Source: a virus. From it: a stretch of 59,020 nt of DNA. Numbering within the stretch: the stretch's first letter is position 1; each line of letters opens with the position of its first letter. The stretch is from IMG/VR virus record IMGVR_UViG_3300034094_000170, positions 1-59,020 of that record. One strand, 5' to 3'. Shown one piece after another: positions 13,705 to 56,875 of the stretch. The translations under genes were made by a program, and so were the position numbers. The notes below the pieces were generated by a model. The model ran no database searches, was not told the origin of the DNA, and was given only the letters and a program-made list of their open reading frames with translations.

Positions 13705-15003
13705 ATGCAATCACTCAAATCAAATTTAATTTTTAATCCACAAGGAAATGATGATGTAAACCATCGGTCAATATGGAAAGGTGAAACCACAAATTTAATG
13801 CAATTAAATGATGTGCGTTATTCCTGGGCTGTTAGTTTGTGGAAACAAATGAGAGAGAATTTTTGGACAAGTGAAAAATTTGATGTCACTCAAGACATTA
13901 ACGATTATCAAAATTTAACACAGCATGAACAGAAAGGTTATGATGGGATACTATCATATTTGATATTTTTAGATTCAATTCAAACGGTCAATATACCACA
14001 TCTAAAAAGTGTTATAACAGCACCAGAAATAAGTCTATGTATGTCAGAACAAACATCTCAAGAAGCTTTACATTCACAATCATATCAATATCTTTTGGAA
14101 AGTATTGTCCCAACTGAAAAACGCAATATAATTTATGATTTTTGGAGGACTGACACATTGCTTTTTGAACGTTGTGAGTTTATATCTTCAATGTATCAAA
14201 AATTTGTTGACACATCAACTGAAGAATCTTATTTTGAGGCGTTGATGGCTAATTTTATTTTAGAAGGATTATATTTTTACTCTGGCTTCTGTTTCTTTTA
14301 TTCTCTTTCTTCTCGAATGTTAATGTCTGGTTCTGCTGATATTTTTCGTATGATTAACCGTTAATTTGTGGCGGCTTTTTACAGCAATGTAAATCGAAAA
14401 CCCCTCTAATTTAGGGGACATCTCAACTGAGACAATCCTAAGCCAATTTAATAATTTATATTATTAAAAGGTTCAACGACTAGCTGAGAAGCGTAGGGTC
14501 AAGTGACTCGAAACGGGGGGCAACCTTATGGGTTGGTGATATAGTCTATTCTAATAGGTGACTATTAGCAGTTTTAAAAAACGGGCAAAGATTAACGAAC
14601 TTTGTTGAATGTATAGGATGAATTATCTCACGTCCGGTTATACCAAAAAATCATACCTAAAGCTATGCAAACTTTTCCACATTCAATAGAGCGAATATAT
14701 GAAATGTTTGATAAAGCTGTAAAATATGAAATCCTTTGGGTTAACCATATTGTCGGCAATGAAATACTAGGAATCACTGAACAAAGCACAGAACAATACA
14801 TCAAATATTTAGCTAACATTCGATTAAAGTCAATTGGTTTACAACCGTTATATAATAAACCAATTTACTTTAAAAACTGTTATGCTCATCTTGAAAAAAT
14901 GGCAGATACAGGAAAAGATGCTAATGTAAAAGCTAACTTTTTTGATAGTGGTGTTACCAGTTATGTGATGTCATCTGGGGTGAGTGGTTGGGAAGAATTT
15001 TAA
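13705..15003 (+). CDS. nrdB: Ribonucleotide reductase class I beta subunit (R2), split by an intron
   Basis: Joined product of 13705..14361 and 14617..15003, 347 aa. R2 makes the radical needed by the large subunit to reduce ribonucleotides for DNA synthesis. All expected iron ligands are present: Asp90 (FLDSIQ), Glu120 and His123 (QEALHSQSY), Glu187 (ILEGLYFY), Glu221 and His224 (RDELSH). The radical Tyr127 is kept. The RDELSH motif is complete only after removal of 14362-14616: exon 1 ends at the codon for Arg219 followed by a stop, and exon 2 begins GAT GAA. The second exon is read upstream of its first ATG. nrdA is not in the window, so it lies elsewhere in the phage or comes from the host. 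It runs opposite to the tail genes. Confidence 0.9.
14362..14616 (+). ncRNA. Group I intron (td-like, subgroup IA2), no internal ORF
   Basis: 255-nt insertion in nrdB. It starts TAATTTG after a U-ending exon and ends in G before GATGAA. Conserved core blocks are visible and close to the phage T4 td intron as I remember it: CAACGACTA near 14473, GTAGGGTCAAGTGACTCG near 14492, GATATAGTCT near 14539, and AAGATTAACGAAC at 14588. Precise removal restores the R2 reading frame and its RDExxH ligand motif. There is no homing endonuclease frame, so mobility would need help from outside. Intron ends were placed by restoring the protein and by the terminal G. Confidence 0.9.
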
Positions 15004-15072: not shown

Positions 15073-15105
15073 TATCAATCCTTTTTATGGATTGTGAATT
15101 GAAAT
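15073..15105 (+). repeat. Solitary CRISPR-repeat-like hairpin with handle tag
   Basis: CAATCC-TTTTTAT-GGATTG forms a stem with a 7-nt loop (15076-15094), followed by the 11-nt TGAATTGAAAT. It is preceded by TAT, as in the array repeat. The stem sequence differs from the array repeat, but the layout and the tag are the same. It lies in the sense strand of the nrdB 3' region. The same loop, TTTTTAT, occurs in the element at 52137. Confidence 0.6.
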
Positions 15106-45713: not shown

Positions 45714-45753
45714 ATTTCAATTCGCATCTCAATATTTTTTTAATATTGAGATG
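45714..45753 (-). repeat. CRISPR-repeat-like hairpin in the cas operon 3' flank (unit a)
   Basis: On the minus strand, CATCTCAATATT and AATATTGAGATG form a perfect 12-bp stem with a 5-nt loop (45725-45753), directly followed by CGAATTGAAAT (45724-45714). That tag equals the handle of array repeats R6 and R7. The stem is unlike the array repeat. It is in sense with the cas5-cas8-cas7 transcript. Confidence 0.6.
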
Positions 45754-45773
45754 TTATCCTCATTTTTTACAAT

Positions 45774-45806
45774 ATTTCAATTTTCAATCCCTATTACTGA
45801 GTATTG
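45774..45806 (-). repeat. CRISPR-repeat-like element, degenerate stem (unit b)
   Basis: Minus-strand CAAT...ATTG with a decayed inner stem (45785-45806), followed by AAAATTGAAAT (45784-45774). Its tag and the first half of the stem equal those of unit c, 62 bp away. Confidence 0.5.
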
Positions 45807-45835
45807 TTACCCAAATATCAAAATATCGTTGCCTT

Positions 45836-45872
45836 ATTTCAATTTTCAATCCCTATTAATTAATAGGGATTG
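45836..45872 (-). repeat. CRISPR-repeat-like hairpin in the cas operon 3' flank (unit c)
   Basis: Minus-strand 26-nt perfect palindrome (13-bp arms, CAATCCCTATTAA and TTAATAGGGATTG; 45847-45872) followed by AAAATTGAAAT (45846-45836). The total is 37 nt, the same length as the array repeat. It begins 15 nt after the cas7 stop. Confidence 0.6.
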
Positions 45873-45887
45873 TTTTAACTATTTCAA

Positions 45888-46748
45888 CTATTTGTCAACA
45901 CTCCAAAAACTTACACTATCTGGAGTATTATCGTAATCAATGGAAATATCATAATCGCTGATACTTCGAGGGATGTCAACATTTTTTTCAACTGACAACA
46001 TCTCAAACAATTTATGACTAGGATAATTACCCCATTTACTGTCATGGGTAAAAATATACAATCCTTGACAGTTCATTGAAGAACGGGCAGAGCTTTTATC
46101 AAATTCCCAACAATTAACAAGCGCATCCCAAAAAAGTTTTAAATCATCTTCAGAAACGTCGCCTTTATTCAAACCAGGATTGTAATGGATTTCAACCTTA
46201 AATAAACCATAAGGGATTAACTCTTTACGACCCATAGTTTTATTGTCCTTGCCCTCAGTTCCCTCAGTAGCGGCACATCGGGTAATTGTTGCTGAAATAG
46301 GCAATACAGGGTCAAACGAACGTCCCCAACTAACTTGTACTGGCCCCCAAACTTGTCCTGCTTTCCATCCAGTAGACAAAACGGCCCCAAACATCCGAAT
46401 ATCAAAATATCTTTGTCGTAGTAATGTCTGAACTTTTTCTTGTTCTTCTGGTGAACCTTCTTTTTTGTTACCTTTTTTGACACTAGGCTCAATCCCTAAA
46501 TCGGTGTAACCTTGGTCAATTTTGTTATTGAGGATACTACCTTCTTTAACAAAAATTTCATGGTTTCCAAGCATTTGAACATAGTTACGAATCTTGCGTT
46601 TAATACAAGCATCGGTCATTAAACCGTGTCGGGTTTCAGAATCGGTTCTTGGCTGATTTCCTGCGTCTGGGTCGCCATTAGGATTACCGTCAGTGCAATC
46701 AACTAATAAGATTGCATCATGTTTTTTGTTAGGGTCAAAGTGGTTCAT
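45888..46748 (-). CDS. cas7c: Cas7, type I-C (Csd2)
   Basis: Protein of 286 aa. The start (KKHDAILLVDCTDGNPNGDP) is the typical Cas7/Csd2 RAMP strand and glycine turn. MFGAVLSTGWKAGQVWGPVQ and SWGRSFDPVLPISATITRCA are family hallmarks. Cas7 forms the backbone that holds the crRNA spacer in the type I-C Cascade complex. It is the last gene of cas5c-cas8c-cas7c, with a 3-nt gap to cas8c. Length is normal for the family and no truncation is seen. Three repeat-like hairpins follow it in the presumed 3' untranslated region. Confidence 0.93.
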   Translation of the reverse strand: MNHFDPNKKHDAILLVDCTDGNPNGDPDAGNQPRTDSETRHGLMTDACIKRKIRNYVQMLGNHEIFVKEGSILNNKIDQGYTDLGIEPSVKKGNKKEGSPEEQEKVQTLLRQRYFDIRMFGAVLSTGWKAGQVWGPVQVSWGRSFDPVLPISATITRCAATEGTEGKDNKTMGRKELIPYGLFKVEIHYNPGLNKGDVSEDDLKLFWDALVNCWEFDKSSARSSMNCQGLYIFTHDSKWGNYPSHKLFEMLSVEKNVDIPRSISDYDISIDYDNTPDSVSFWSVDK

Positions 46749-46751
46749 GGT

Positions 46752-48449
46752 TTATTCTTCCTCTTGTTTGTTTTCAGTGTTTTGTTTAGTGTAAAATTCA
46801 GCCCGTCGCTTTGCAAATCCTATGAAAAACAAAGATTTTTGACGGAGTGAAAAATTTTCAGGTAAGTTTTCAGGATTAAATTCTAAAAACTCGGAATCTA
46901 AACAGTTTTGGACGTAAATCGTATTTGTTGCCGATTGTAGATGGTGACAATAACAACCTTGATACAATCGGTCAAATACTTGAAAAGGTGTTGTTGAAAG
47001 TGTTTTAAGAGAACGCAACACATTAGTATCTTCATTGTTTCCTTGATTACGTCCTTTTATTTGTGCAACGTGCATCAAGAAAGCAATCCGACCTAATCGG
47101 TATGCAATATCATCATTTGTTTCCATTTTGATTTCTTTGATTGTTTGGTTGAGATAGAGCAAAAGACCTTTTACTCTGACAGCAAGAGAATAACTAAAAA
47201 ACTTTAGATTTTCCTCGCTATGGCATTCGGCACAGATTCTATCAATTAGTTTTTGAGCATATTCATCTGGTAATGTTTTACCCAAAAGAGTGTAATAAAT
47301 CAAAGCTGTTTCCACTCTTTGAGTGTAATCACCCGCATCAAAAAAAGCAGCTTTAATCAATGCGTAAATGGGCAAAACTTTACCATCAAGTGATTGTTGG
47401 ATTTCAAGAAAACGTTTGACATTTTCAGCTATTTCATCGGGAGTAGTTTTGTTAATCCCATTGATAGCAATCCTTCCAGCATTACCCTTTAAAATACCAA
47501 GGTAAAACTCAGATGAATATGCTCTGGTGTTTGCTGAAGTTTTACCTCCATAAACACTTTTGAAAAGACCTGAGAATTTTATTGATTCAGGGTCATTCCA
47601 AAACTCATCATTTATTCCCTCCTGATTGACATTTCCCCAATAAACAAACATCTGCTTATTAAGGGTTTGGTGATGATATGGGGAGTTTATTAAGTAGTCA
47701 AGTCCACTTATCACCCCCCATGCTGTATCAATCCCTATAGGCGCATTGTCATTACCTTTAAATCCCCATCCCTGATAGGCAGGTTTATCAAAAGATGTGA
47801 TTGATGCTCCAGTGCTATTGCCACCAGGGATATTTTTTATTTTTTCAGGGAAAACACTCAAAATAATTGGTTGTTTTTCCCCAGTGATGATACAACGTTT
47901 ATCATTCCAATCATCTAAATCTAAACGGTCAAGATATTCAAACCGCCAAAACTCTTGAATTTTTGGAGTGTCAGAAATTAGTTTTGGTTGCTCATCATCT
48001 CCTGTTGTACAGAATGCAAACCTCAACCCTTCACCCATTTTTTTATTAGGAACAGGTTTGCATCCGATTTCTTTGAGATGATTTACAACATCTTTTGTGT
48101 TAACGCTTTCAAGATAAGATATAATTTTGGAAGTGTTAACGTCTAACGTCTTCTTGCAACATCTATGCAGCAACTCCAAATATGCTGCATATTTTTTTTT
48201 ATCCAAACCTAAAACGTATTCACCAACATCAACAATCAAGATAGGAACTGTCCCATTTCTACTCAGTGATGGCACAATCATCCGTTTACCCTGAGTGCTA
48301 AAAACTTTATCCTTTTTGATTCTCTCTGTTTTTAATAATGTGATGGAATTGTTATCAACATTAATCAAAACATCAACTTTTTGAGTGGAATAACCTACGG
48401 GTAATTGCGGGTTTAATGTTTTAGAAAAATCATACAATTCTTTTAGCAT
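46752..48449 (-). CDS. cas8c: Cas8c, type I-C large subunit (Csd1)
   Basis: Protein of 565 aa, of the length expected for Csd1. It has family-like segments ALGLDKKKYAAYLELLHRC, FCTTGDDEQPKLISDTPKI, CIITGEKQPI, NSPYHHQTLNKQMFVYWGN, and the helical C-terminal part RLGRIAFLMHVAQIKGRNQG. Cas8c recognises the PAM and, in I-C, an internal start is known to yield the Cas11c small subunit; ATG codons in the C-terminal third (for example at METNDD) could serve but I cannot prove this. It overlaps cas5c by 7 nt. The frame is intact. Confidence 0.92.
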   Translation of the reverse strand: MLKELYDFSKTLNPQLPVGYSTQKVDVLINVDNNSITLLKTERIKKDKVFSTQGKRMIVPSLSRNGTVPILIVDVGEYVLGLDKKKYAAYLELLHRCCKKTLDVNTSKIISYLESVNTKDVVNHLKEIGCKPVPNKKMGEGLRFAFCTTGDDEQPKLISDTPKIQEFWRFEYLDRLDLDDWNDKRCIITGEKQPIILSVFPEKIKNIPGGNSTGASITSFDKPAYQGWGFKGNDNAPIGIDTAWGVISGLDYLINSPYHHQTLNKQMFVYWGNVNQEGINDEFWNDPESIKFSGLFKSVYGGKTSANTRAYSSEFYLGILKGNAGRIAINGINKTTPDEIAENVKRFLEIQQSLDGKVLPIYALIKAAFFDAGDYTQRVETALIYYTLLGKTLPDEYAQKLIDRICAECHSEENLKFFSYSLAVRVKGLLLYLNQTIKEIKMETNDDIAYRLGRIAFLMHVAQIKGRNQGNNEDTNVLRSLKTLSTTPFQVFDRLYQGCYCHHLQSATNTIYVQNCLDSEFLEFNPENLPENFSLRQKSLFFIGFAKRRAEFYTKQNTENKQEEE

Positions 48450-49090
48450 CGCACTACCCCATTTTTCATGATTGCTTCAAAATATTCAGGTTCAACATTA
48501 CCCTTTGTAATCTTTTTTTGTTGATGGTCAAACCATTGAAGCTTGCCTGTTTTACTAGGGTTAAAATTTATCTTTTTGAGAACTTGTCCAAAGTTAAACT
48601 CACCCAAAAGTTCGGGATGTACCTGTTCAGTACCATCAGGAAATTTAAAAGCACAAGCATACTCTTTAACACCCATACATGGTTGTTTGAAACAAGCACC
48701 TTGACTGATTCGCTTGTTTACGATGGCAAAATATTTATCAATTGGGTCTGTTGCCCTTTTAGTCAATTCCATGCCAAAATCAATGATGTAAGCAGGGTTT
48801 TTAAGAACAACAAAATTGCGCTGTGAACGGTCGTCACTGATGATGTAATGTTCTTTGTCGTAACTACTGGTAACGATTTTACTCTTACCCATATTACGAA
48901 AAAAAGAAGCGTATCTGATTGGATTCAGAACTGTTATACTGTTGACCGTATACTCGATTTCCGGTTTCCAGAAAATCGCCTTTAGGATTCCCTCTGCTGC
49001 ACTAGGAGTGAGAAAAGGATATGAAAATGGGTCAGCTTTTGTTTCGGGTTTTGTGAATAAACCATACTCGCCCCACACTTTTAATTGCAT
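48443..49090 (-). CDS. cas5c: Cas5c (Cas5d), crRNA-processing endoribonuclease
   Basis: Protein of 215 aa. Family motifs: MQLKVWGEYGLFTKPETKAD at the start, then VLNPIRYASFFRN, SDDRSQRNFVVLKNPAYIID and CMGVKEYACAF. In type I-C systems this protein replaces Cas6: it cuts the repeat at the 3' base of its hairpin and leaves an 11-nt 5' handle on the crRNA. The array repeat here has a 7-bp stem followed by exactly 11 nt, which fits. It is first in the cas operon with its own promoter, and its 5' leader contains the handle sequence. Confidence 0.9.
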   Translation of the reverse strand: MQLKVWGEYGLFTKPETKADPFSYPFLTPSAAEGILKAIFWKPEIEYTVNSITVLNPIRYASFFRNMGKSKIVTSSYDKEHYIISDDRSQRNFVVLKNPAYIIDFGMELTKRATDPIDKYFAIVNKRISQGACFKQPCMGVKEYACAFKFPDGTEQVHPELLGEFNFGQVLKKINFNPSKTGKLQWFDHQQKKITKGNVEPEYFEAIMKNGVVRC

Positions 49091-49102
49091 AGGTTTATAT
49101 TT

Positions 49103-49146
49103 TTAATTCAGTATTTCAATTCGGTTGTTTGCTCTTACTGAATTAA
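49103..49146 (-). promoter_or_regulatory. Hairpin with CRISPR handle sequence in the cas operon leader
   Basis: TTAATTCAGTA (49103-49113) and TACTGAATTAA (49136-49146) are perfect 11-bp inverted arms. The 22-nt loop, in the sense of the cas mRNA, contains CCGAATTGAAA, continuing into U, which matches the crRNA handle. The hairpin ends 13 nt before the cas5c ATG, so it could affect translation or bind Cas5. Confidence 0.5.
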
Positions 49147-49173
49147 ATATACCAATAAAAAGCTAGTTGTAAA
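49146..49173 (-). promoter_or_regulatory. Promoter of the cas5c-cas8c-cas7c operon
   Basis: Minus-strand TTTACA (49173-49168) and TATATT (49151-49146) with 16 nt between. The predicted start falls at or near the beginning of the leader hairpin. Confidence 0.6.
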
Positions 49174-49304: not shown

Positions 49305-51389
49305 ATGGAATTACACGCCAGGAGATTTATAGTTAATGGTAAATTTATTACACAAGATTTGATAGAGCATCTTAAAGGTGTTGCCAACAAATCAAGTGAT
49401 AAATTTAAAAATATTTCAGTTGATTTAAAAACATTAGCTTTTTATGCAGGGCTATTACATGACGTTGGAAAAGCTAAAAAATCATGGCAAAAATATATGT
49501 TTAAAAAATCGTGGGAAAAACATCTAACAAAAAAATCAGATAAAAAAAAATCAAAAGTTGAAATGGTTTTCCACTCATCAGAGGGTGCTAGAGCTATCAT
49601 GGAACTGTCAGGTGATGACTACCACCCGCTTGCATGGATTATTCAAGCGCATCACACAGAGTTAAAAAACCAAAGTGATTTAGGAAGTGATTATTTTATT
49701 GAAAATTCTAAACATTGGAAAACTTGCCTTGACCGTGTTTTTCCTGGGTTTGATATCAATAAAATTCCAAAATTAAAATTAAATATTTTAAAAAAAGAGT
49801 TGGCAATCAGGATGTTGTATTCAGTTTTAGTTGATTCTGATAGGCTTGATGCTCAAGAATTTGAAGAAAGATATTATAAAAACGTTGTTACACATAAACC
49901 ATCTATCTTGACTGTCTGTAATATATGGTCAAATATACCAGTACCACCACCGGAAAACACTTTGGTATCGGTTGAGCGTAAATATTTTAGAGATATTGTC
50001 AGTGGTTATATCAAAGATAAAAAAACCTGTTACCGATTAATTGGTGCTACTGGAGTAGGAAAAACACTTACATCACTCAACTTTGCATTAGAGCATTGCA
50101 AATATCATAATATGGATGGATTGATTTATGTTGCTCCGTACAAGTCAATCATTGACCAAACTGCTAAGATATATCGTGAATTGTTGAGTGATGATGCTGT
50201 TTTGGAACATCACTCCGATTTTGTACCTAAACCTAAAGATGAAAATGATTATAAGTTATCTTGCCAAAGGTGGGATTATCCGGTGATAGTTACTACTGCG
50301 GTACAATTTTTTGAGTCAATATTTTCTAACAAATCTACCCGATGTCGCAAGCTTCAAGGATTACTCAATAAGGTGATTTTGATTGATGAATACCAAACTA
50401 TTCCACCTAATTTAATTGAATCAATTGCCGATATTTTAAAAAATTTAGTTGAAGATTTTGGATGCACTGTAGTTTTAATGTCAGCTACAGCACCAAATTT
50501 ATCGGGTTTTAATTTACCCCATGTTGACATGATTCCACAATCAGAAGTAAATCGTCAATTTGAAGTTTTGCAGCGTTGTGAGTATGAATTTAAGGAGTTT
50601 GATTATCAAGAAATAGCTAATTTTCCTGGTAAAAAACTTGTAATCGTAAACACCACGAAAACAGCATTAAATTATTTTCAATATTTTGATAGTGTCCAAC
50701 CGGGACAATGGCTACACTTATCATCTCGGATGTGTGTTTCACATCGTAAAGAAGTGATTAAAAAATTAAAAACTGGTAAATATAATTGTGTCAGCACTCA
50801 GATTGTGGAAGCAGGGATTGATATTGATTACCCCACAGTTTTTACAGAAGAATGTCCTTTTGATTCATTGATTCAACGTGGTGGACGTTGTAATCGTGAA
50901 GGTAAATTACCGTCAATGGGTAAAGTTTTTATCATCCCTTGCAGCAATTATCCTGGTCAAGAATACAGACAGTTGGCAATTACAACATCTAATTATATTT
51001 TAAACCATAAAGGCTTTAAACCTGATGAATTGGTTGGCTTATTGAGTAAATATTTTAGTGTGAGAAATTCTAATATTTCATCTGAAATTCAAGATTTAAG
51101 AAAGAATTTAATGTTTAAAGATGTCAACGATAAATTCAAAGTGATTGAGGATGGTATGCCTAATGTTTTATGTGAATGGGGTGATGGAATACAATTAATT
51201 AATCAGTTAAAAAATAAACCAAAATTGACACCTAATGAATGGAAACAATTACAACAATTTACTGCAACAATTTTACCCAAGGATGATAATTTTAAAAATG
51301 TTGTAGAATATGATAATGGTATGAGAGTTTGGAATGATGGATATGATGATAATTTTGGAGTATATATTCAAACTTCATATATTATTTAA
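49305..51389 (+). CDS. cas3: Cas3 nuclease-helicase
   Basis: Protein of 694 aa with the full HD-helicase layout. The HD nuclease part has GLLHDVGK (His52-Asp53) and a later AHH. The helicase part has Walker A GATGVGKT near 247, DEYQ near 361 (a DExx box), motif III SATAP near 393, and QRGGRCNREG near 522. Cas3 is recruited by Cascade to nick and degrade target DNA. It is divergent from the cas operon and just upstream of the CRISPR leader. AGGA lies 8-11 nt before the ATG. Nothing is missing, so the interference machinery is complete. Confidence 0.93.
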   Translation: MELHARRFIVNGKFITQDLIEHLKGVANKSSDKFKNISVDLKTLAFYAGLLHDVGKAKKSWQKYMFKKSWEKHLTKKSDKKKSKVEMVFHSSEGARAIMELSGDDYHPLAWIIQAHHTELKNQSDLGSDYFIENSKHWKTCLDRVFPGFDINKIPKLKLNILKKELAIRMLYSVLVDSDRLDAQEFEERYYKNVVTHKPSILTVCNIWSNIPVPPPENTLVSVERKYFRDIVSGYIKDKKTCYRLIGATGVGKTLTSLNFALEHCKYHNMDGLIYVAPYKSIIDQTAKIYRELLSDDAVLEHHSDFVPKPKDENDYKLSCQRWDYPVIVTTAVQFFESIFSNKSTRCRKLQGLLNKVILIDEYQTIPPNLIESIADILKNLVEDFGCTVVLMSATAPNLSGFNLPHVDMIPQSEVNRQFEVLQRCEYEFKEFDYQEIANFPGKKLVIVNTTKTALNYFQYFDSVQPGQWLHLSSRMCVSHRKEVIKKLKTGKYNCVSTQIVEAGIDIDYPTVFTEECPFDSLIQRGGRCNREGKLPSMGKVFIIPCSNYPGQEYRQLAITTSNYILNHKGFKPDELVGLLSKYFSVRNSNISSEIQDLRKNLMFKDVNDKFKVIEDGMPNVLCEWGDGIQLINQLKNKPKLTPNEWKQLQQFTATILPKDDNFKNVVEYDNGMRVWNDGYDDNFGVYIQTSYII

Positions 51390-51642
51390 TTCCGACAACC
51401 TAGAGGTGTACAGCTAACAATGTCTAAAAAATAGTCTACACCTCTCACCACACAACCCTTTGAGCGATTCTAACTTAAAAATAGGTTGGCGGAAACGCTA
51501 GAATACTTATGGGTAAACATTTTTTGATGATTATTACTAATATCCACTTGACAAATAATGAATACATTTGCTATTATTAATTCAGGTTGTCGGAATCAAA
51601 CCTTGAAAACTAAATATATCAAGGGTTTGAAAAGCAATGCAA
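51389..51642 (+). promoter_or_regulatory. CRISPR leader with inverted-repeat motifs
   Basis: This stretch separates cas3 from the first repeat. It contains a perfect 13-bp inverted repeat (ATTCCGACAACCT 51389-51401; AGGTTGTCGGAAT 51584-51596), a third near copy AGGTTGGCGGAA (51483-51494), and an inner 9-bp pair AGAGGTGTA/TACACCTCT (51402-51410, 51437-51445). A further hairpin, TCAAACC-TTGA / TCAAG-GGTTTGA, ends shortly before repeat 1. Confidence 0.6.
51548..51577 (+). promoter_or_regulatory. CRISPR array promoter
   Basis: TTGACA (51548-51553), 18 nt, TATTAT (51572-51577). Both boxes are close to consensus. Transcription would begin near 51584, at the second arm of the 13-bp inverted repeat, about 59 nt before repeat 1. 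Confidence 0.75.
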
Positions 51643-52136: not shown

Positions 52137-52170
52137 CAATCTCGTTTTTATCGAGATTGAGAATTGAAAC
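52137..52170 (+). repeat. CRISPR-repeat-like hairpin after the array (first)
   Basis: CAATCTCG-TTTTTAT-CGAGATTG is a perfect 8-bp stem with a 7-nt loop, followed by AGAATTGAAAC. It lies 17 nt after repeat 7, too near for a normal spacer, and the stem differs wholly from the array repeat. Confidence 0.6.
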
Positions 52171-52224: not shown

Positions 52225-52234
52225 ACGATAATTT

Positions 52235-53560
52235 GACACTCCCCGCTCTAAAGAGACGGGGATTCTTGGTTCACAGAGATTACTTGCTTAGACAGAATTG
52301 CTTCTGAAAAAGTAGAGGTATTCTCTCCCCAAGCGTTTATTGGGTCGAGCCCAAAGGTTCCGGTATGCCCTACCGTACTTAGTCCCCTTTTAAGGATGTT
52401 GATTGCGGCGTTTTCATCCCTATCCAAAACACATCCACACTTGCACTGATGGGTTCTAGTCGATAAAGATTTTTTGACAGTTTCACCACAGTTTGAACAG
52501 TTTTGGCTTGTATAGTTCGGTGCGACAGCAATCGTTATCTTGCCAAATTTAACCCCAAAATACTCTATCCATTCCCGAAACTGATACCAGGCCGCATCAT
52601 TTATCGATTTAGCTAGACAATGATTCTTGACTAAGTTCTTAACTCTTAAATCCTCGTAGGCTATCACATCGCTAGAGTGAACTACGCACCTTGCTAATTT
52701 CACAGCAAAGTCTTGACGTTGCCTACTTACTTTAAGATGAGCTTTAGCTAATCTTTGTCTAGCTTTTTGACGATTTTTACTTCCCTTTTTCTTTTTAGAT
52801 AATCGCCTTTGAAGTCGTTTTAATCGTTTCTCAGACTTTCTCAAGAATTGAGGATTATCAACCTTGTTGCCATTGTTATCTGTATAGAAAGAAGCCAAAC
52901 CTACATCTAAGCCAATACACTTACCTGATGGTTTAACATCTTCTTTAACGTCACAAGAAAGGACAAATTGACAATAATAACCGTCCGCTCTCCGAATCAA
53001 CCTAACCCGTTTAATATCGGATTCTTGAAAGTACCCTAAATCCCAAGTTCCTACCAACTTAAGAACACCAATGTTTTTCTTGTCAGTGAACTTAACAGTT
53101 TTCGGGCTAAGAAGCTTCCATCCTGATTGTTTGTATTCAACAGAGCGAGATTTTTTAAATTGAGGATACCCCTTTTTGCCTGATACTTTACGTTTACAGT
53201 TGTCGTAAAAACGACTAATTGAACTCCAAGCACGTTCAGCACTTGCCTGTCTAGCAGTTGAATTAAGTTCATCGGCAAATTTAAAGTCCTGAGCTAATTC
53301 TTTAGAATATCGGTATAAATCGTTCTTACCCGTACCTTTTGTATCCATCCATAACCTTACACATTTGTTACGGATGAATTGAGCAGTACGAATAGCATCG
53401 TCTATGGCTTGATACTGTTGAGTTTTAGCTTTAACTTTAAACTCTAAGACAAACATTTTACGCAGGGGGGACTTAGACAAAATCAGTATAGCACAATAAA
53501 AGTTAAGTTAACAAGCTATAGTTTAAAAAGCCGTCCTAAAAGGACGGGGCTTTAACCCAA
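52235..53560 (-). mobile_element. Solo tnpB element (IS1341-type, IS200/IS605 family)
   Basis: tnpB without tnpA. The right-end hairpin CCCCG...CGGGG lies at 52241-52261 in a sequence almost identical to that of the second element (52235-52266 against 54562-54593). The left-end hairpin CCGTCCT-AAA-AGGACGG is at 53531-53547. Exact tips are approximate. It would depend on a transposase in trans, perhaps from the neighbouring IS605-like element. Confidence 0.7.
52248..53480 (-). CDS. tnpB: TnpB, RNA-guided nuclease of a solo IS element
   Basis: Protein of 410 aa with intact RuvC residues: Asp about 189 (IGLDVG), Glu about 276 (AYEDL) and Asp about 355 (DRDENAA). A zinc ribbon CSNCG...CKCGC precedes the last one. 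The N-terminal helix-turn-helix part (AIRTAQFIRNKCVRLWMD) is normal. TnpB proteins cut DNA next to a transposon-adjacent motif, using an omega RNA made from the gene's 3' end and the element's right end. The stop lies in the right-end hairpin, as expected. It borders the CRISPR array. Confidence 0.88.
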   Translation of the reverse strand: MSKSPLRKMFVLEFKVKAKTQQYQAIDDAIRTAQFIRNKCVRLWMDTKGTGKNDLYRYSKELAQDFKFADELNSTARQASAERAWSSISRFYDNCKRKVSGKKGYPQFKKSRSVEYKQSGWKLLSPKTVKFTDKKNIGVLKLVGTWDLGYFQESDIKRVRLIRRADGYYCQFVLSCDVKEDVKPSGKCIGLDVGLASFYTDNNGNKVDNPQFLRKSEKRLKRLQRRLSKKKKGSKNRQKARQRLAKAHLKVSRQRQDFAVKLARCVVHSSDVIAYEDLRVKNLVKNHCLAKSINDAAWYQFREWIEYFGVKFGKITIAVAPNYTSQNCSNCGETVKKSLSTRTHQCKCGCVLDRDENAAINILKRGLSTVGHTGTFGLDPINAWGENTSTFSEAILSKQVISVNQESPSL

Positions 53561-54558: not shown

Positions 54559-54598
54559 ATTGACACTCCCCGCTCTGAAGAGACGGGGATTCTACATT

Positions 54599-56507: not shown

Positions 56508-56723
56508 ATGAAAACAGTACCATTAACAAAAGAAAATCTTTCACCTGATGTAATTCTAAACCTTAAAAAATTAAATATTAACATTGATGATTGTTTTATT
56601 ATGAAAGATTATTGGAATTTTAACTTTTCCAGACAAAATGGTAGAATTATACACGGTCAGGATGAGTATAAAATTTGGAGAGATGTAATCGGAGGTGATT
56701 GGTTGTGGGTAGAAAATCAATAA
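56508..56723 (+). CDS. Small hypothetical protein
   Basis: Protein of 71 aa (MKTVPLTKENLSPDVILNLK). Two parts: a helical N-terminus and an aromatic C-terminus (DYWNFNFSRQNGRIIHGQDE). A TATAAT lies 26 nt before the ATG; no Shine-Dalgarno site is visible. The gene is followed in sense by two and a half hairpin-tag repeats. No family recognised. Confidence 0.55.
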   Translation: MKTVPLTKENLSPDVILNLKKLNINIDDCFIMKDYWNFNFSRQNGRIIHGQDEYKIWRDVIGGDWLWVENQ

Positions 56724-56746
56724 TATAATATTAAAAAAATTAAAAT

Positions 56747-56875
56747 AGATGAGCGACTAACTAACAATACATAATTAATTATGTATTGAGAATTGAAATA
56801 GATGAGCGACTAACTAACAATACATAATTAATTATGTATTGAGAATTGAAATAATTATGTATTGAGAATTGAAAC
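56747..56875 (+). repeat. Tandem hairpin-tag repeats with CRISPR-like handles
   Basis: Two identical 53-bp units (56747-56799, 56800-56852) and a 23-bp third part (56853-56875). Each unit is an 18-nt stretch (AGATGAGCGACTAACTAA), a 24-nt perfect palindrome (CAATACATAATT and its complement) and the tag AGAATTGAAAT. The third part keeps half the stem and ends AGAATTGAAAC. The sense is that of the preceding gene. Confidence 0.7.

What the first reader, a model, noticed from the sequence alone, without database searches (positions are those of the whole stretch)
45714..45872. Hairpins with unlike stems but the crRNA handle, in the 3' flank of the cas operon
Three minus-strand units follow cas7. 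Two have perfect stems (12 bp and 13 bp) that share no sequence with the array stem, and each unit is followed at once by an 11-nt tag (CGAATTGAAAT or AAAATTGAAAT) matching the array's handle. Type I-C Cas5 cuts at the 3' base of such a hairpin to leave an 11-nt handle. Stems that differ yet pair perfectly point to selection for structure rather than decay of old repeats. Inference: Cas5 may process the cas mRNA itself, releasing short guide-like RNAs or controlling its own transcript.
Basis: partly seen in the sequence, partly recalled or inferred. Interest (0 to 1): 0.88.

Follow-up and report, generated by a model that had tools for sequence, protein, structure and literature searches.

The report
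Scattered phage hairpins mimicking CRISPR repeats
A virus of bloom-forming cyanobacteria that carries its own small CRISPR system also scatters, at the ends of several of its genes, short RNA hairpins that copy the shape and tail of a CRISPR repeat but not its stem sequence, probably to be bound and cut by a CRISPR enzyme and so to act as decoys or regulators.

Summary
After cas7 lie three minus-strand units: two perfect hairpins (11 and 12 bp, not 12 and 13) and one imperfect one, each abutting an 11-nt handle like the array's. Five further such units with unlike stems lie elsewhere in the window: two at the array tail, one after a ribonucleotide-reductase gene, two in tandem after a small ORF. 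Outside the array, 6 perfect stems of at least 7 bp abut the handle; 200 shuffles gave none. A covariance model finds 15 units in the window (7 array, 8 ectopic), nothing above 18.4 bits in nine known phages, and little off the cas locus in cyanobacterial genomes. Comparable units follow cas7 in Planktothrix and other cyanobacterial type I-C loci. They also occur in phage contigs where no Cas5 or Cas7 was found, one a PaV-LD-like Planktothrix phage matched exactly by Planktothrix I-C spacers. Best reading: ectopic I-C repeats kept for Cas5c recognition, acting as Racr-like crRNA decoys and, on the cas mRNA, as cleavage or feedback sites. New variant of a known kind.

The parts
45836..45872 (-). 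ectopic unit 1: 11-bp hairpin + handle AAAATTGAAAT, 15 nt after the cas7 stop
   Evidence: 33.2 bits; near-identical stem at the same place in Planktothrix L009
45774..45806 (-). ectopic unit 2: imperfect hairpin, array-like, handle AAAATTGAAAT
   Evidence: 31.6 bits
45714..45753 (-). ectopic unit 3: 12-bp hairpin + handle CGAATTGAAAT
   Evidence: 27.9 bits
45811..45835 (-). spacer-like stretch after unit 1, resembling the cas7 codons for RQRYFDI (own cas7 46395-46420)
15076..15105 (+). ectopic unit: 6-bp hairpin + TGAATTGAAAT after the RNR small-subunit gene, before a terminator-like hairpin
   Evidence: (29.1 bits)
52137..52170 (+). ectopic unit at the array tail: 8-bp hairpin + AGAATTGAAAC
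   Evidence: 34.7 bits
52189..52224 (+). ectopic unit at the array tail: 9-bp hairpin + AGAATTAAAAT
   Evidence: 27.9 bits
56765..56799 (+). ectopic unit: 10-bp hairpin + AGAATTGAAAT, tandem copy 1
   Evidence: 33.6 bits
56818..56852 (+). ectopic unit, tandem copy 2, followed by a half copy to 56875
   Evidence: 33.6 bits
51643..52119 (+). canonical I-C array: 7 repeats GTATCAACTCCTAGCAATGGGAGTTGCGAATTGAAAC/T, spacers 35-38 nt
51476..51642 (+). array leader, related to the leaders of Planktothrix and phage L017
45888..46748 (-). cas7 (Csd2)
   Evidence: PF05107, E 1.7e-85
46752..48449 (-). cas8c (Csd1)
   Evidence: PF09709, E 1.1e-63
48443..49090 (-). cas5c/d, the likely processing enzyme
   Evidence: PF09704, E 2.1e-21; solved Cas5d relatives; same residues as array-bearing cyanobacterial relatives
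49305..51389 (+). cas3, divergent from the cas5-8-7 operon
   Evidence: Cas3 HD and helicase Pfam domains

Best explanation
The units are ectopic type I-C repeats: a hairpin of free sequence but fixed shape, closed by C-G and A-U, directly followed by the 11-nt crRNA handle. They sit downstream of phage genes so that they are transcribed with them. Cas5c (the phage's own, the host's, or both) is expected to bind each hairpin and cut at its base, leaving a handle-bearing RNA whose 'guide' is usually too short (about 13-29 nt) for normal interference. Such RNAs would occupy Cas5, Cas8 and Cas7 as crRNA decoys, in the manner of RNA anti-CRISPRs. On the cas mRNA the same cut would also trim the transcript and give feedback on the phage's own Cascade. 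Stems can diverge because Cas5c reads shape plus handle, and because unlike stems recombine less. Shown: anatomy, phasing, non-randomness, pairing of unlike stems, recurrence. Inferred: transcription, cutting, decoy action, feedback.
For: Perfect stems abutting the handle far exceed chance. Model R1 separates 15 units (>=27.9 bits) from the next window match (16.3 bits). Stems pair with themselves, much less with each other; in a set including Planktothrix, Snowella and array repeats, 24 cells changed on both sides against 4.9 in shuffles. Specificity: no match above 18.4 bits in nine known phages and 0-1 strong off-locus hits per cyanobacterial genome. Comparable units after cas7: Planktothrix L009, L084, L085; L093, whose unit stem CAGACATC/GATGTCTG differs from its array stem CAGACCCC/GGGGTCTG by paired changes; after cas3 in L095. 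Phage contigs with units but no Cas5 or Cas7 found: G394 (four units, one between two cistrons) and G393. G393 is PaV-LD-like and carries exact 34- and 32-nt matches to spacers of a Planktothrix I-C array, so it is targeted by the system whose repeat it mimics. Precedent: RacrIC1, 11 nt downstream of an acrIC5 gene in one transcript, inhibits type I-C (PMC10651486).
Against: No expression or cleavage data. A decoy would also tax the phage's own I-C complex, whose handle is the same. Bacterial cas loci carry such units too, where an anti-CRISPR makes no sense; there they include 35-nt spacers and look like small arrays. G394 and G393 are fragments, so their phages may still encode cas genes. 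In the predicted minimum-energy fold the two tandem units at 56.8 kb pair with each other rather than forming two hairpins. The alignment behind searches was trimmed to the stems, so its covariation counts are partly circular.
Confidence: 0.47

Rival explanations
1. RNA-processing sites: Cas5c is used as a sequence-specific RNase that trims or separates phage messages, and on the cas mRNA gives negative feedback on Cas levels.
For: All phage units checked that follow a gene lie about 15-92 nt downstream of a same-strand stop codon, one between two cistrons of a G394 operon. cas7-proximal units recur in bacterial I-C loci with different stems. The cas7 3' region folds far better than shuffles, z -6.3.
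Against: In about 14 of 20 cyanobacterial I-C loci no separate cas7-proximal unit was seen, so it is not required. G394 and G393 show no Cas5 in the contigs, so those phages would depend on host Cas5.
Confidence: 0.25
2. Leaderless mini-arrays and array-tail relics: real but old repeats whose transcripts may still give crRNAs; repeats drift under structural constraint because no Cas1-Cas2 keeps them uniform. The first spacer could be aimed at the cas7 of a related I-C system.
For: Planktothrix L084 and L085 carry repeat-35 nt spacer-repeat between cas7 and the leader; Snowella has six divergent repeats after cas7; no cas1/2/4 was recognised among the ORFs near the locus. The stretch after unit 1 matches own cas7 at 22/28, with the Arg-codon differences synonymous.
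Against: Spacers in the phage units are shorter than in any array examined. Units after RNR and after the 56.5-kb ORF have no array context. The cas7 match has seed mismatches and no exact target was found in IMG/VR.
Confidence: 0.2
3. CreR/CreA-like guides that direct Cascade to a promoter, repressing cas genes or a toxin.
For: Ectopic, degenerate repeats next to cas genes are typical of these (PMC9458426; PMC12737573).
Against: None of ten candidate guides has a seed match of 8 nt or more in the cas5 promoter or the array leader; spacers differ between species.
Confidence: 0.03
4. Coincidental terminators or transposon ends.
For: IS200/IS605-family genes lie in the window, and hairpins are common at operon ends.
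Against: Separate terminator-like hairpins follow several units; the fixed 11-nt tag and its phasing are not terminator features; shuffles give none.
Confidence: 0.03

Closest known systems
Solitary repeat units / RNA anti-CRISPRs (Racr), in particular RacrIC1 (PMC10651486)
   Same: Repeat mimics in phage intergenic regions, downstream of genes, with the hairpin and handle of the host's CRISPR subtype; RacrIC1 inhibits type I-C.
   Different: Here several units per phage, stems unlike each other and unlike the array, some clustered, in a phage with its own I-C effector; the published finder needs BLAST similarity to known repeats and discards clustered ones, so such units would tend to be missed.
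CreA/CreR ectopic degenerate repeats (PMC9458426; PMC12737573)
   Same: Degenerate repeats outside arrays, next to cas genes; degeneration reduces recombination.
   Different: The haloarchaeal repeats studied lack a conserved hairpin; here the hairpin is what is kept, and no guide match to the cas promoter was found.
Virus-borne mini-CRISPR arrays (PMC6858448; PMC11656645)
   Same: Phage-carried repeats that could use host Cas proteins; spacer 1 resembles cas7 of a related system.
   Different: Mini-array repeats equal the host repeat; these differ in stem, and the spacers are too short.
Type I-C CRISPR repeats processed by Cas5d/Cas5c (B. halodurans; reviewed in PMC3890593)
   Same: Hairpin cut at its base leaving an 11-nt 5' handle; Cas5d reads hairpin plus 3' single strand.
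   Different: Not in an array with full-length spacers; stems free.

Membership tests
Type I-C repeat unit (Cas5c substrate) | hairpin directly followed by an 11-nt handle like the cognate array | tested here: met
Type I-C repeat unit (Cas5c substrate) | cleaved by Cas5c at the hairpin base | not testable with these tools
   no biochemical data
Racr / solitary repeat unit | repeat mimic in a viral genome, outside an array | tested here: met
Racr / solitary repeat unit | matches the CRISPR subtype of the host, which targets the phage | tested here: inconclusive
   met for G393 (Planktothrix I-C spacers match it exactly); host of the window phage not established
Racr / solitary repeat unit | truly solitary, no other repeat within 100 nt (published finder rule) | tested here: not met
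   met at 15076 and in G393; not met for the cas7, array-tail and 56.8-kb units. Filed as works-like, not as strict member
Racr / solitary repeat unit | inhibits CRISPR interference | not testable with these tools
   needs a plaque or conjugation assay
CreR / CreA | guide with partial complementarity to the cas or toxin promoter | tested here: not met
   no seed match >=8 in the cas5 promoter for ten guides; toxin promoters not tested
Viral mini-CRISPR array | repeats identical to the host's, spacers of normal length | tested here: not met
   stems differ; spacers about 13-29 nt
[quoted passage not shown]

The most novel reading that the evidence does not exclude
A phage family has turned Cas5c into a general RNA-processing enzyme: hairpin-plus-handle cut sites at the ends of and between many of its genes, with stems diversified to stay stable, so that Cas5c shapes phage messages and at the same time releases crRNA-like decoys that starve the host's type I-C complex.
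Probability: 0.15. Interest if true: 0.88.

Novelty: new variant of a known kind. Interest (0 to 1): 0.62.

Why it matters
If right, repeat mimics in viruses are more common than sequence-based searches show, because only shape and handle need be kept; they can be found with a covariance model. It would also link RNA anti-CRISPRs, degenerate ectopic repeats and cas-mRNA control in one element, and raise the question of how a phage that carries its own I-C effector lives with decoys of the same kind.

Tried and rejected
CreR-type promoter guides: no seed match in the cas5 promoter. Exact target for the cas7-like spacer: none in IMG/VR beyond the sister contig. IMG/VR scan CAATCN{8,24}GATTGNRAATTGAAAY: 13 new contigs, none with a convincing unit. 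Scan GGGATTGNRAATTGAAAY: nearly all chance, but it gave G393 and G394. A hairpin in relative L016 (8484) is not matched by the model and is left as doubtful; so is G397:2252. Host of the window phage by spacer-like matches in 391 cyanobacterial genomes: none seen; the RNR gene swamped one search. Loss of Cas5 activity: the residues expected for catalysis, placed from memory of B. halodurans Cas5d, are changed but equally so in array-bearing relatives, so no conclusion. A model search over a whole phylum was not run.

Full report
The window is a 59,020-base virus record of a tailed phage: portal and major head proteins are recognised, and the nearest Cas7 relatives are cyanobacterial (Planktothrix 72%, Aphanizomenon 58%, Roseofilum 56%, Snowella 50%). 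It carries cas3, cas5d, cas8c and cas7 of type I-C and a 7-repeat array with a leader. No cas1, cas2 or cas4 was recognised among the ORFs near the locus, but I did not scan every ORF with profiles.

Observation. The three units after cas7 are there. Stems are 11 and 12 bp rather than 12 and 13, and the middle unit is imperfect. Tag and phasing are as described. Excluding the array, 6 perfect stems of 7 bp or more directly abut NRAATTRAAAY, against none in 200 dinucleotide-preserving shuffles. A covariance model built from 16 phage and cyanobacterial repeats finds 7 array repeats and 8 ectopic units at 27.9 bits or more; the next match is 16.3 bits. Most of these were used to build the model or are close to those that were, so the gap is the informative part.

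Structure rather than decay. Among the window units the 7 outer pairs are complete in all but the 15076 unit (6 of 7) and unit 2, while the 5' arm of one unit pairs with the 3' arm of another at only 4.9 of 7 on average, and stem identity between units averages 59%. In the mixed alignment 24 cells changed on both sides against 4.9 in shuffles; because arms were trimmed to the stems this is partly circular. The Snowella locus is an independent case: six repeats after cas7, spaced like an array, with unlike stems that mostly pair (scan). In locus L093 the single unit after cas7 and the array behind it differ by paired changes in the stem.

Where units occur. In Planktothrix paucivesiculata a unit nearly identical to phage unit 1 lies 10 nt after the cas7 stop, followed by a terminator-like hairpin and then the leader. 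Two other Planktothrix-like genomes carry repeat-spacer-repeat at that place; a fourth has none. One locus has a unit after cas3 (L095). In whole genomes the model finds little outside the cas locus. Nine known phages, eight of cyanobacteria, give nothing above 18.4 bits.

Phages without cas in hand. Contig G394 (45.7 kb, replication genes) has four units, two in tandem after an ORF and one between two genes of an operon. Contig G393 (50.5 kb) has one, 34 nt after an ORF. Neither contig shows Cas7 or Cas5, though both are fragments. G393 aligns over long stretches with Planktothrix phage PaV-LD, and two spacers of a Planktothrix type I-C array (locus L083, whose Cas7 is 72% identical to the phage's) match it exactly over 34 and 32 nt. 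So a phage targeted by a Planktothrix I-C system carries a mimic of the I-C repeat. PaV-LD itself has no such unit. A relative of the window phage, L017, has a 3-repeat array with yet another stem next to the same gene.

Mechanism. Cas5d is known to read the hairpin and the 3' single strand and to cut at the hairpin base, leaving an 11-nt handle (PMC3890593). The phage Cas5 is full length and has the same residues as relatives that serve large arrays. Units in transcripts should therefore be bound or cut. What is released has guides shorter than the roughly 30-46 nt typical of the arrays, so decoy action like RacrIC1 (PMC10651486) is my first choice. A promoter-directed guide was tested and not found. 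The stretch after unit 1 resembles cas7 codons for RQRYFDI, with the arginine-codon differences synonymous, as if it came from a relative's cas7; no exact source was found.

Limits. No RNA data; host of the window phage not shown; contigs fragmentary. L083 is held without a name; it is called Planktothrix here because its cas locus and leader are nearly those of the named P. paucivesiculata record and its spacers match PaV-LD. The bacterial cas7-proximal units are better described as small leaderless arrays, so one single function for all units may not exist.

Noticed in passing
window 14352-14568 +: Group I intron (Rfam RF00028, 96 bits) at the 3' end of the first RNR small-subunit ORF; a second ORF resumes at 14665.
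   Followed up: no
window 49085-49150 -: 5' region of cas5 holds a handle-like CGAATTGAAAT inside the loop of a 12-bp perfect inverted repeat (TTTAATTCAGTA/TACTGAATTAAA); fold z -4.7. Possible operator or Cas5 site.
   Followed up: partly
L012 3451-3852: Snowella MAG: CRISPR array of six mutually divergent repeats with largely paired stems directly after cas7.
   Followed up: partly
L083 array; L138 7377-7408 and 11876-11909; PaV-LD: Spacers of a Planktothrix-type I-C array match a PaV-LD-like phage contig exactly (34/34, 32/32) and PaV-LD itself (33 nt, 36 nt).
   Followed up: partly
window 56508-56723 +: 71-aa ORF with no PHROG match directly upstream of the tandem units; by analogy with acr-racr operons a candidate anti-CRISPR protein, untested.
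   Followed up: partly
window 56738-56853 +: 53-bp tandem duplication carrying the 56.8-kb unit and its flank, plus a half copy to 56875.
   Followed up: no
window 52233-52266 and 54560-54593: Near-identical 34-bp ends next to two TnpB (IS605 OrfB) genes; the first matches Microcystis phage MaMV-DC exactly over 33 bp.
   Followed up: no
window 15327-35834 -: One ORF of 6,835 aa (tape-measure-like in position), internally repetitive.
   Followed up: no
L016 8484-8523: Long bulged hairpin TGTTATCAA...TTGATAACA followed by TGAATTGAAAT in the structural gene cluster of a relative phage; not matched by the model, doubtful.
   Followed up: partly
L095 5702: Single repeat unit about 68 nt after the cas3 match end in a cyanobacterial I-C locus.
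   Followed up: no
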